Assembly (NCBI GenBank): GCA_021838785.1
Contig: JAKCCV010000022.1
Location: 1-60,052, forward strand
Length of the DNA stretch: 60,052 bases
Direction of reading: 5' to 3'
Source: Acidobacteriota bacterium
GTDB taxonomy: Bacteria; Acidobacteriota; Terriglobia; UBA7540
The position numbers and the translations under genes are program-made. Position 1 is the first letter of the stretch; each line of letters opens with the position of its first letter. Positions 38,468 through 41,442 of this stretch are shown piece by piece. The notes beneath the pieces are model-generated. The model did no database searches and was not told where the DNA came from. It was given only the letters and a program-made list of their open reading frames with translations.

Positions 38468-39517
38468 ATGAAGAAGATGGAAGTGGGGATTTTAGGAGCA
38501 ACGGGCATGGTGGGGCAGCGGTTTCTCAGCCTGCTGGAGCACCATCCCTGGTTTGAGGCCACGTGGGTTGCGGCCTCCGACCGCTCGGCGGGAAAGAAAT
38601 ACGGCGAAGCGTGCAACTGGCGGCTGCGCTCGCCGATGCCCGTCGCCGCGCGCGACCTGGAGGTGCATGAGTGCAAGCCCGGCGGCGCGCCCCAGCTTAT
38701 TTTTTCTTCACTCGATTCCAAAGTCGCGGGCGAGATTGAGAAGGAATTCGCCCGCGCCGGCCACGTGGTGGTCTCAAATTCCTCCAATCATCGGATGGAT
38801 GCGGACGTCCCGCTGCTGATTCCGGAAGTCAACCCCGACCATTTGGCCCTGGTGCGCACGCAGCGAAAACAGCGCGGCTGGTCGGGCATGATCGTCACCA
38901 ATCCTAACTGCACGACGGTTGGCTTGGTGATGTCGCTTGCGCCGCTGGAGCGTGCTTTCGGCTTGTCGAAGGTCATGATGACCAGCATGCAGGCGGTATC
39001 GGGCGCCGGTTACCCCGGCGTGCCGACCCTCGATATTTTGGGCAACGTGATTCCGTATATCTCGGGCGAGGAAGAAAAGGTGGAGCGTGAAACGCAAAAG
39101 CTGCTGGGGCAATTGGTGGACGGTCGAGTGCGGCCGGGTGATTTTGCCGTCAGCGCCCACTGCAACCGCGTGATGGTCGAGGACGGCCACACTGAATCCA
39201 TATCCGTCGCACTGCGCCAAAAGGTGAGCCTCGGGGAATTGATCGAAGCCTGGCGTCGCTTCCGCTCCTTGCCGCAGGAACGCAACTTGCCCAGCGCGCC
39301 CCAGCATCCCATTGTCGTCCGGGATGAAGCCGACCGGCCTCAGCCCCGGCTGGACGCCGAAACGGAGCACGGCATGGCGACGGTCATTGGTCGCGTGCGA
39401 CCTTGCCCGGTGCTCGAATTCAAATATACGGCGCTCAGCCACAACACCATTCGTGGCGCCGCGGGCGCGGCCTTGCTCAACGCCGAATTGATGAGGTCGG
39501 AAGGATACTTGGACTAA
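38468..39517 (+). CDS. asd: Aspartate-semialdehyde dehydrogenase (archaeal/fungal-type)
   Basis: Reduces aspartyl-phosphate to aspartate semialdehyde for lysine, threonine and methionine. The 349-residue product starts MKKMEVGILGATGMVGQRFL with the NADP motif. The catalytic Cys is in VTNPNCTTVGLVMSLAPL and a downstream substrate region reads MQAVSGAGYPGVPTLDILGNVIPYI. This form resembles the archaeal/yeast subclass rather than E. coli Asd. The ATG at 38468 has AGGAGA five bases upstream. Two non-metabolic genes separate it from dapB. Confidence 0.94.
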   Translation: MKKMEVGILGATGMVGQRFLSLLEHHPWFEATWVAASDRSAGKKYGEACNWRLRSPMPVAARDLEVHECKPGGAPQLIFSSLDSKVAGEIEKEFARAGHVVVSNSSNHRMDADVPLLIPEVNPDHLALVRTQRKQRGWSGMIVTNPNCTTVGLVMSLAPLERAFGLSKVMMTSMQAVSGAGYPGVPTLDILGNVIPYISGEEEKVERETQKLLGQLVDGRVRPGDFAVSAHCNRVMVEDGHTESISVALRQKVSLGELIEAWRRFRSLPQERNLPSAPQHPIVVRDEADRPQPRLDAETEHGMATVIGRVRPCPVLEFKYTALSHNTIRGAAGAALLNAELMRSEGYLD

Positions 39518-39588
39518 GGGGCAGGACGGATAGGGCCCAGCCCAAATGCGTCAAGCTGTTACCACTGTCCTGCTTAGGAGTGCGTTTC

Positions 39589-40143
39589 GTGGGGAGCACT
39601 AACTGGCTTGCTCTGGCGAGCGTGGTCGCGGCGATTGCGGCGTTCCTTATCGCCGCCTACCAAGCGAACCTCTTACGGAAAAGCATACAACTGACCGCGA
39701 TACTCGAACTGGATAAAGAGTGGAATGGGATTGAGATGTCCGACAGCCGGAGGTCATTCTGGACAGACGAAGGCCGCCCTGGTCCGAAGGATCCCGAAAG
39801 CGTGCTGGAATTCCTTGAGAAGGTTAGCTCGCTTGAGGAGAGCAGGATTATTGACGAAAAATTGATATGGGACACGTTCGGCTGGTACGTCATGAGATAC
39901 TGGCACTATAGCAAGAGCTTAGTTGAGGATGATTTGCGTATTCGTTGGACGCACCGAGCCGATGCGACCCTATACCAAGACCTCGAAAAGCTCGCCAAAA
40001 AGCTGATTGAGCGCGAAGCGAAGCAGAGAAAGCTAAATGAAGAGGAAATAACGAAAGAACTGGACGATAATGACCTGAGAAGGAAGTTTGCAGAAGCTGA
40101 AAGGGACATTCCCGTTGATGCTGGACCAAAGTCGGATTCCTAG
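39589..40143 (+). CDS. DUF4760-like membrane-anchored protein
   Basis: From a GTG at 39589 (TTAGGAG eight bases upstream) the product is 184 residues: a short helix (NWLALASVVAAIAAFLIAAYQ, about residues 5-25) then a helical cytoplasmic domain (LLRKSIQLTAILELDKEWNG...FWTDEGRPGPKDPESVLEFLEKVSSLEESRIIDEKLIWDTFGWYVMRYWHYS) and a charged coiled-coil-like end. The membrane-anchor plus conserved W/Y pattern resembles DUF4760. DNA here is clearly less GC-rich than the neighbours. Its stop overlaps the SET gene start by 26 bases, so the two are likely co-translated. Confidence 0.7.
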   Translation: MGSTNWLALASVVAAIAAFLIAAYQANLLRKSIQLTAILELDKEWNGIEMSDSRRSFWTDEGRPGPKDPESVLEFLEKVSSLEESRIIDEKLIWDTFGWYVMRYWHYSKSLVEDDLRIRWTHRADATLYQDLEKLAKKLIEREAKQRKLNEEEITKELDDNDLRRKFAEAERDIPVDAGPKSDS

Positions 40144-40690
40144 ACTGCTAATAGAATTGCGACCCACGAAGACCCGCGTGGGAGGCGTGGGAGTTTTTGC
40201 GGCCTCCAACATCCGGAAGGGTCAGGTCATCGCGGCCGGCGTCGCTGAGGAGGACTACAAAAGGCTCATCCCCTGGCGGGAATTTAAGAACTTCAGTCCG
40301 AAGCTCCGCGCGAAGATCATGCAATTCTGCATCGGAACCTCCGAAGGCTTTATCCCGCCCCAGAATCTCGATTTCAACCAGCTTTCTATTGAGTGGTACA
40401 TGAACCATTCCTGCGACGGCAATGTCGGGTTTGACGAGAACGGGAACTTTGTTGCTCGGCGGAACGTAAAGAAGGGATCGGAGCTAAGGTATGATTACGG
40501 GCTCGCTGAATCCAACCCGGCCTTCCGAATGCGGTGTAAGTGCGGCTCCCGGAAGTGTCGCGGAATGGTTACCGGAAACGATTGGAAGAGGGAGGACTTC
40601 AGGAAGAAAAATCTCAGGTACATGCTCCCAAGACTCCGCCTTGGGGAAGTCCAACCCAATCAAAACCGCGGCCTCCGATCGGCTGCCTGA
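40118..40690 (+). CDS. SET-domain protein methyltransferase
   Basis: 190 residues from the ATG at 40118. Features: RVGGVGVFAASNIRKGQVI (SET-N), NHSCDGNVGF with N96-H97-S98-C99 (SAM/knot motif), VARRNVKKGSELRYDYGL with the catalytic-site Tyr, and a post-SET CxCxxxxC cluster (C140, C142, C147). These are full SET-fold hallmarks, so it should methylate lysine in a protein. Bacterial SET proteins are uncommon and their targets mostly unknown. It overlaps the DUF4760-like gene and lies 20 bases before dapB, in AT-richer inserted DNA. Confidence 0.88.
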   Translation: MLDQSRIPRLLIELRPTKTRVGGVGVFAASNIRKGQVIAAGVAEEDYKRLIPWREFKNFSPKLRAKIMQFCIGTSEGFIPPQNLDFNQLSIEWYMNHSCDGNVGFDENGNFVARRNVKKGSELRYDYGLAESNPAFRMRCKCGSRKCRGMVTGNDWKREDFRKKNLRYMLPRLRLGEVQPNQNRGLRSAA

Positions 40691-40710
40691 CCCTCATACT
40701 GGACTTGGCA

Positions 40711-41442
40711 GTGTCAGAACCTAGCCCTAGTTCTCATCCATTGCGCCTCCTGAATCTCGCCCTGCTGGGCTACGGCAAGATGGGTCGGACGATTGCGCAA
40801 CTGGCGCCCTCGCGCGGCTTTGAAGTGAGGCTGACGCTGGATGTGGACACCAATGCGGGCGGCCAAGCTATCACGCGGGAAAACTTCCAAGGCATAGACG
40901 TCGCGGTGGATTTCACCACGCCCGAAGCGGCCGTGGAGAACATCCGTCGCGTGGCCGCGCTGGGCGTCAACCTGGTGGTGGGCACGACCGGCTGGCACCA
41001 TCGCCTGGAAGAGGTGCGTGGCATCATCGAATCGAGCGGCGTGGGGATGGTTTATGCCGCGAACTTTTCGATTGGCGTTCAGATGTTTTATCGCTTGGCG
41101 CGGGCCGCTGCGCAAGAGTTCGCGTCGCTGACCATGTATGAGCCTTATCTCACCGAGGCCCATCATCGCGCCAAAAAAGATGCGCCTTCCGGCACGGCGC
41201 TTGAACTCCAGCGTCAAATTCAGCCCTGGCTCGGCGAGCGCGTCTTAACCATCGCCAGCGTTCGCGCCGGCTACATTCCCGGCACCCATGAGCTGGGATT
41301 TGATTCCGAGGCGGACACCGTGATTCTGCGTCACACGGCGCGCAGTCGCCAAGGCTTCGCCGAAGGCGCTCTCTACGCCGCGCGCTGGATTGCGGGCAAG
41401 AAAGGTTTGTTCAATTTTTCGGATATACTGGGAGGCAGGTAA
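40711..41442 (+). CDS. dapB: 4-hydroxy-tetrahydrodipicolinate reductase DapB
   Basis: Reduces the DapA product to tetrahydrodipicolinate. NAD(P)-binding LNLALLGYGKMGRTI, VVGTTGWHHRL, and the signature EAHHRAKKDAPSGTALEL are intact. The N-terminus is uncertain: a GTG at 40711 and a TTG at 40741 are the candidates and neither has a clear ribosome site; the frame continues backward into the SET gene region. The product is about 243 residues from 40711. The inserted upstream pair has probably replaced the native leader. Confidence 0.93.
   Translation: MSEPSPSSHPLRLLNLALLGYGKMGRTIAQLAPSRGFEVRLTLDVDTNAGGQAITRENFQGIDVAVDFTTPEAAVENIRRVAALGVNLVVGTTGWHHRLEEVRGIIESSGVGMVYAANFSIGVQMFYRLARAAAQEFASLTMYEPYLTEAHHRAKKDAPSGTALELQRQIQPWLGERVLTIASVRAGYIPGTHELGFDSEADTVILRHTARSRQGFAEGALYAARWIAGKKGLFNFSDILGGR

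What the first reader, a model, noticed from the sequence alone, without database searches (positions are those of the whole stretch)
39518..40710. SET methyltransferase and DUF4760-like membrane protein inserted in the DAP cluster
A co-translated pair, in less GC-rich DNA, separates asd from dapB. SET enzymes are rare in bacteria, and pairing one with a membrane-anchored helical protein suggests a modification or defence module with an unknown target.
Basis: partly seen in the sequence, partly recalled or inferred. Interest (0 to 1): 0.6.

Follow-up and report, generated by a model that had tools for sequence, protein, structure and literature searches.

The report
Mobile membrane–SET methyltransferase gene pair
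Two small overlapping genes, one for a membrane protein of unknown function and one for a SET-type methyltransferase (the enzyme class that marks histones in our cells), form a mobile unit that was inserted into this bacterium's lysine-making operon and recurs, always as neighbours, in unrelated bacteria; it looks like an undescribed protein-modification module, quite possibly one used in conflicts with phages.

Summary
Between asd and dapB lies a GTG-start DUF4760 gene (39580-40143; one N-terminal membrane helix) overlapping by 26 nt a SET gene (40118-40690) with complete NHSC, Tyr and post-SET Cys signatures. It is an insertion: a sister species has 118 nt there, and the pair contains the lowest-GC stretch of the window. 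The pair is conserved: I found it at 11 distinct places in Acidobacteriota and several 'Deltaproteobacteria' bins, at unrelated sites and of lower GC than its flanks wherever measured. The same SET subfamily also sits beside, or is fused to, other membrane proteins, once in a dense defence island, once in a phage tail-gene module. At one site in two close relatives the DUF4760 gene is an allele swap (64% identical, against 97% for SET and about 94% for the flanks). DUF4760 proteins elsewhere neighbour OLD nucleases, other methyltransferases, toxin-antitoxin genes and a phage integrase. Most DUF4760-SET copies, however, lie among housekeeping genes and match no PADLOC family. Best reading: a mobile module that tethers a protein methyltransferase to the inner membrane, more likely than not in genetic conflict. 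The target is unknown.

The parts
39580..40143 (+). DUF4760 membrane protein, 187 aa, GTG start (39589 is an alternative); membrane helix about residues 9-27, then a cytosolic helical bundle
   Evidence: Pfam PF15956 2.8e-9; hydropathy; AlphaFold2 mean pLDDT 86.9, long helix 7-48 followed by a bundle; conserved partner alignment A3
40118..40690 (+). SET-domain methyltransferase, 190 aa, with post-SET zinc-binding cysteines
   Evidence: Pfam PF00856 7.5e-10; N96-H97-S98-C99, Y127 and C140/C142/C147 invariant in 15 of 15 homologues; model closest to KMT2/ASH1L/SETD2 SET domains
40118..40143 (+). 26-nt overlap of the two genes, suggesting translational coupling
   Evidence: sequence; overlaps of 4-47 nt, or direct abutment, at the other aligned DUF4760-SET pairs
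39518..40746 (+). inserted segment between asd and dapB; no recombinase gene, terminal repeat or target-site duplication seen
   Evidence: 118 nt in sister species G002; 18 of 21 relatives with the interval have short gaps; repeat scan
38468..39517 (+). asd, aspartate-semialdehyde dehydrogenase (left flank)
   Evidence: Pfam
40747..41442 (+). dapB, dihydrodipicolinate reductase (right flank; start codon not certain)
   Evidence: Pfam

Best explanation
The pair is a horizontally moved two-gene module. The DUF4760 protein sits in the cytoplasmic membrane by one N-terminal helix and presents a cytosolic helical bundle. The SET protein, translated with it, binds that bundle (inferred) and so becomes a membrane-tethered, SAM-dependent protein (most likely lysine) methyltransferase (chemistry inferred from motifs). 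The enzyme half is kept conserved while the membrane half varies between alleles and is replaced by other membrane proteins in sister modules, so the membrane half probably sets where, or on what, the enzyme acts. The most likely purpose is genetic conflict, meaning interference with phages or other invading elements, rather than lysine synthesis, whose operon is only the landing site. Shown here: mobility, conservation of the pair, intact catalytic motifs, predicted membrane helix, allele swapping of DUF4760 at one site. Inferred: physical complex, lysine methylation, conflict role. Unknown: the substrate.
For: Pair conservation: DUF4760 lies directly upstream of SET at 11 distinct places (window, L042-L046, L048, L050, L052, L057, L110; L047 is the same sequence as L046 in another bin), with overlap or abutment. 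Mobility: empty site in the sister; unrelated sites elsewhere; GC below flanks at 12 of 12 membrane-SET pairs measured, 34% against 61% in L052. Membrane theme: the same SET subfamily is next to, or fused with (L049), a different multi-helix protein in L049/L054/L056, and with a 285-aa plus membrane-protein set in L055 and in phage contig L163, so 17 of 19 family members seen have a membrane protein beside or fused to them. Conflict links: L056 is in an island with AbiEi, DUF4062 and a type IIG RM gene, and L049 is next to a IIG RM gene; L163 lies between a tail-terminator and other phage genes; other membrane-type DUF4760 genes abut OLD-family ATPase/TOPRIM genes (L164, L169), Methyltransf_33 and LCM methyltransferases (L104, L166), BrnT or Gp49-type toxin genes, a temperate-phage integrase and plasmid genes. 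Allele exchange: L044 against L045, DUF4760 dS 0.94 and 64% identity, SET dS 0.46 and 97%, flanks dS 0.15-0.29.
Against: Most DUF4760-SET copies are not in defence islands. No PADLOC match for either protein beyond E = 0.002. Host range found is narrow and no plasmid record encodes this DUF4760 subfamily. Distances of the two halves correlate only because of one clade (Mantel r 0.78, p 0.001 with nine; 0.01, not significant, with six), so strict co-inheritance is not shown. No complex was modelled. The dN/dS of DUF4760 is below 1, so the swap shows exchange of alleles, not positive selection as such. Neighbour scans had no matched random-gene control.
Confidence: 0.48

Rival explanations
1. 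A membrane-tethered protein methyltransferase with an ordinary accessory role (envelope or ribosome maintenance, stress), spread horizontally but not for conflict.
For: Most copies sit singly among housekeeping genes; in one clade the pair stays at one site, between a radical-SAM gene and a GlsB-like gene, in four relatives.
Against: Patchy presence, empty sites, low GC, allele swap, and defence, phage and plasmid surroundings of related modules.
Confidence: 0.27
2. DUF4760 is a membrane-acting toxin or effector and SET is its activator or restraint, by methylating it or binding it (toxin-antitoxin or abortive-infection logic).
For: Overlapping genes; DUF4760 elsewhere pairs with OLD nucleases and with two other methyltransferase families.
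Against: No lysine of DUF4760 is invariant in nine homologues; a single helix plus a well-ordered bundle is not a typical pore; DUF4760 loci without SET are common.
Confidence: 0.12
3. The SET enzyme methylates a small molecule, as BurB does with methionine; possibly an amino acid of the lysine/DAP route in which it lies.
For: BurB (9l4t/9l4v) is among the nearest solved structures; BurB methylates free Met (PMC12542666); two CPR-like homologues lie beside ATP-grasp ligases, one of them with an aminomutase-like gene; two relatives carry another SET type in the same asd-dapB gap.
Against: The other DUF4760-SET copies are not near lysine genes; the fold and motifs are at least as close to KMT2/ASH1L protein methyltransferases.
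Confidence: 0.1
4. A passing insertion without a role in this host.
For: No promoter-like site was found by a simple scan; one relative (L057) looks broken.
Against: Both frames are open, catalytic residues are intact in 15 of 15, and the SET is conserved at 43-66% identity across phyla.
Confidence: 0.03

Closest known systems
Protein-lysine methyltransferases with SET plus post-SET (KMT2/MLL, ASH1L, SETD2)
   Same: SET fold, NHSC and catalytic Tyr motifs, post-SET cysteines; best Foldseek and profile matches
   Different: 190 aa only, no reader or binding domains, bacterial, gene-coupled to a membrane protein; substrate unknown
Other bacterial SET proteins (NUE, RomA/LegAS4, BaSET; reviewed in PMC3980110)
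   Same: bacterial SET domain
   Different: those described act mainly on host histones in pathogens; here an environmental genome and a membrane partner; secretion was not tested
BurB, SET methionine S-methyltransferase (PMC12542666)
   Same: SET and post-SET region aligns (E 2.6e-9; Foldseek rank 14)
   Different: BurB acts on free Met; the stretch matched by sequence is only residues 94-154
DUF4760 (PF15956)
   Same: above the Pfam cut-off
   Different: divergent membrane-anchored subfamily; the common Acidobacteriota DUF4760 (79 of 101 relatives have a DUF4760 match) scores far higher, is separate in the genome, and the copies read appear soluble
FRG-SET fusions (PADLOC PDC-S15) and ATP-grasp-SET fusions
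   Same: SET joined to a putative conflict or peptide-ligase domain
   Different: other SET subfamilies, no DUF4760 at the joint; those of the FRG type read here lack NHSC and the post-SET cysteines

Membership tests
SET-domain methyltransferase (PF00856) | domain match above curated cut-off | tested here: met
   39.6 bits against 22.4
SET-domain methyltransferase (PF00856) | NHSC motif, catalytic Tyr, SET fold | tested here: met
   invariant in 15 of 15; Foldseek prob 1.00 to KMT2/ASH1L, Z about 11
SET-domain methyltransferase (PF00856) | post-SET zinc cysteines | tested here: met
   C99, C140, C142, C147 invariant; zinc itself not tested
SET-domain methyltransferase (PF00856) | SAM-dependent methylation of protein lysine | not testable with these tools
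   needs an enzyme assay
DUF4760 (PF15956) | domain match above curated cut-off | tested here: met
   37.7 bits against 25
DUF4760 (PF15956) | resemblance to a solved fold | tested here: inconclusive
   no significant PDB match; one viral model with probability 1.00 but E 0.03
BurB-type methionine methyltransferase | overall similarity to BurB | tested here: inconclusive
   partial alignment only; BurB binds Met mainly by main-chain atoms, so no simple side-chain test exists
BurB-type methionine methyltransferase | DMSP-pathway gene neighbours | tested here: inconclusive
   neighbours in the window are DAP genes and those read at other loci look unrelated; no profile search for the DMSP genes was run
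Described anti-phage defence system | match to a PADLOC-DB model | tested here: not met
   DUF4760 best E 0.0023, 15 bits; SET none
Described anti-phage defence system | location in defence islands | tested here: not met
   DUF4760-SET loci mostly among housekeeping genes; sister module L056 is in one
Described anti-phage defence system | protection against phage | not testable with these tools
   needs plating assays

The most novel reading that the evidence does not exclude
A new class of bacterial conflict system built on histone-type protein-lysine methylation: a conserved SET enzyme is recruited to the membrane by interchangeable, diverging membrane partners (DUF4760, a multi-helix protein, or a 285-aa plus membrane-protein set), carried also by phages, and acts by marking an invader's or the cell's own proteins.
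Probability: 0.25. Interest if true: 0.85.

Novelty: new variant of a known kind. Interest (0 to 1): 0.55.

Why it matters
What most free-living bacterial SET enzymes do is an open question. A small, self-contained SET module with a fixed membrane partner gives a concrete, two-gene, testable case, and links histone-type methylation to the prokaryotic mobile gene pool. It also gives DUF4760, which appears by name in only one paper of the library searched, a recurrent set of partners.

Tried and rejected
(1) Pair as a native part of the DAP operon: rejected, since 18 of 21 relatives with the interval, the sister species among them, have only a short gap there. (2) Functional tie to lysine genes because G018 and G007 also carry a SET gene in the same gap: those SETs form another subfamily (about 33% identical, no NHSC, separate clade) and the other DUF4760-SET copies are not near lysine genes; the coincidence stays unexplained. 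(3) Transposon ends or duplications: none convincing. (4) Co-phylogeny of the two halves as proof of co-inheritance: not significant once near-duplicates are removed. (5) Solved-fold search for DUF4760: nothing usable. (6) Plasmids and phages: only distant generic SETs, and the pair's DUF4760 has no plasmid hit. (7) Viral scan with one SET sequence found nothing; with the alignment it found L163. (8) Papers on SET plus DUF4760, or SET in phage defence: none found. (9) A viral scan with the DUF4760 alignment was not possible because it is too variable.

Full report
OBSERVATION. The window is contig C12 of a 3.4-Mb genome held as 38 contigs, of a family that contains Acidobacteria MAGs. Between asd (38468-39517) and dapB (from about 40747), all on the + strand, lie two ORFs. 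The first, GTG at 39580 to 40143, is a DUF4760 protein (Pfam 2.8e-9); the second, ATG at 40118 to 40690, is a SET protein (7.5e-10). They overlap by 26 nt. GC is 53.4% against 62% around, and the lowest-GC 1.1-kb stretch of the window begins inside the pair. It is the only SET gene found in the genome; a second DUF4760 gene lies on contig C30 and scores much higher.

INSERTION. M20 peptidase - asd - dapB - dapA is conserved in the family. In G002, whose Asd is 99% identical, asd and dapB are 118 nt apart. Of 21 genomes with both genes on one contig, 18 have short gaps (2-233 nt) and three have inserts of 613-1232 nt (for L134, measured from an incomplete Asd match, and the second piece puts the gap at about 195 nt). 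All three inserts hold a SET gene. Those of G018 (L119) and G007 (L125), however, are of another subfamily, with N-S-S or N-T-S in place of N-H-S and no post-SET cysteines, that groups with FRG-SET proteins; in G007 the SET gene again follows a multi-helix membrane protein. Why one gap should receive SET genes more than once is not explained. No recombinase, repeat ends or duplicated target were seen.

CONSERVATION OF THE PAIR. Searches of relatives found the pair in two more genomes of the family at other sites, beside a protein I read as FG-GAP-repeat (L003/L042) and beside a TrpE-like gene (L004/L050). A scan of 84,980 species genomes with the SET alignment gave 23 loci, 16 of them close (43-66% identity). 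A DUF4760 gene lies directly upstream in L042-L048, L050, L052 and L057, and in L110 (by translation, since Pfam did not flag the shortened ORF). With the window that is 11 distinct places (L047 is the same sequence as L046). Among 396 genomes drawn over the phylum the partner subfamily was found with confidence only in the window's own and the SET subfamily likewise, while 106 carried some SET match. In the nine aligned DUF4760-SET pairs gene ends overlap by 4-47 nt or abut, and GC is below flanks in all 12 membrane-SET pairs measured.

OTHER PARTNERS OF THIS SET SUBFAMILY. In L054 and L056 the gene before SET is a multi-helix protein; in L049 a homologous domain is fused to SET. In L055 the SET gene lies between a 285-aa gene and a membrane-protein gene; both have homologues (31% and 36% identity) beside the SET gene of viral contig L163, between a tail-terminator gene and further phage genes. 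L051 and L053 lie next to large ATP-grasp proteins instead. So 17 of 19 subfamily members seen have a membrane protein beside or fused to them. L056 is in a dense defence island (AbiEi, DUF4062/HATPase, type IIG RM), and L049 is next to a IIG RM gene. The DUF4760-SET loci themselves are mostly among housekeeping genes; only L043 has transposase-like and MNT/HEPN-type toxin genes near (read by eye).

WHAT DUF4760 DOES ELSEWHERE. Membrane-type DUF4760 genes in other genomes lie next to: a protein with a weak nucleoside-deoxyribosyltransferase match and a Methyltransf_33 domain (L104), an LCM methyltransferase (L166), AAA_15/OLD-TOPRIM proteins (L164, L169), BrnT (L168, below Pfam's cut-off) and a Gp49-type toxin gene (L164). 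On plasmids they are near conjugation or restriction genes, and in Alteromonas phage P24 the hit lies about 20 nt from the integrase gene (weak match, E 5e-3). These are small samples without a random control.

STRUCTURE. DUF4760 model: mean pLDDT 86.9 with nine sequences; helix 7-48 carries the predicted membrane segment 9-27 and runs on into a bundle. No solved relative was found. The SET model (mean pLDDT 79; the five models varied from 50 to 79, so details are unsure) matches KMT2, ASH1L and SETD2 SET domains and BurB. Catalytic N, H, Y and the four zinc cysteines are invariant in 15 of 15. No lysine of DUF4760 is invariant.

ALLELE SWAP. L044 and L045 carry the pair at the same site with flanks about 92% identical in DNA. 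Identity falls to about 70% over the DUF4760 gene only. Protein identity is 64% (dS 0.94) for DUF4760, 97% (dS 0.46) for SET, 91-96% (dS 0.15-0.29) for the other genes. Between L045 and L048 both halves are above background: DUF4760 57%, SET 79%, flanks 86-95%. Raised dS points to replacement by a diverged allele. The site is empty in at least two further relatives (L150, L153). The swap rests on one locus in a few genomes.

MECHANISM. The simplest model: DUF4760 anchors and positions the SET enzyme at the inner face of the membrane, where the pair methylates a protein; the anchor varies and is exchangeable, the enzyme is constant. That the aim is conflict rests on mobility, allele exchange and the company kept by relatives of each half. 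It is not shown for this pair, and the company kept by the pair itself does not support it. Confidence: about 0.75 for a membrane-tethered methyltransferase module, 0.48 for that plus a conflict role.

COMPARISON. Members of known families: SET and DUF4760 by Pfam. Not a member of any PADLOC defence family. BurB (PMC12542666) shows that bacterial SET enzymes may act on small molecules, so lysine methylation of a protein is likely, not proved. No paper in the library searched describes a SET-DUF4760 pair; most subscription papers are not held.

Noticed in passing
L119:2665-3078 and L125:2594-3589: Two relatives carry a different SET subfamily (no NHSC, no post-SET) in the same asd-dapB gap; in L125 it follows a 164-aa multi-helix membrane gene. 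Three of three inserts in this gap are SET genes.
   Followed up: partly
L021:706-1899, L077 and L012: FRG domain fused or next to a SET domain (PADLOC PDC-S15 match in L021).
   Followed up: partly
L009:475-1983, and homologous matches in L010, L011, L013: D-Ala-D-Ala-ligase-like ATP-grasp domain fused to SET in Acidobacteriota (L009 read through); ATP-grasp proteins lie beside the SET gene in loci L051 and L053.
   Followed up: partly
L104:99-2052: A protein with a weak deoxyribosyltransferase (TIR/SLOG-like) match and a Methyltransf_33 domain, directly followed by a membrane DUF4760 gene: a second kind of methyltransferase-DUF4760 pair.
   Followed up: partly
L164:2-2037 and L169:1318-3243: OLD-family ATPase/TOPRIM gene directly upstream of a membrane DUF4760 gene in two genomes.
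   Followed up: partly
L163:4794-6832: Low-GC cassette (54% against about 64-66%) with SET, a 286-aa protein and a membrane protein inside a phage tail-gene module.
   Followed up: partly
G000:C30:18153-18494: A second, high-scoring DUF4760 gene; this type occurs in most Acidobacteriota relatives (79 of 101 with a DUF4760 match), and the copies read look soluble; function unknown.
   Followed up: no
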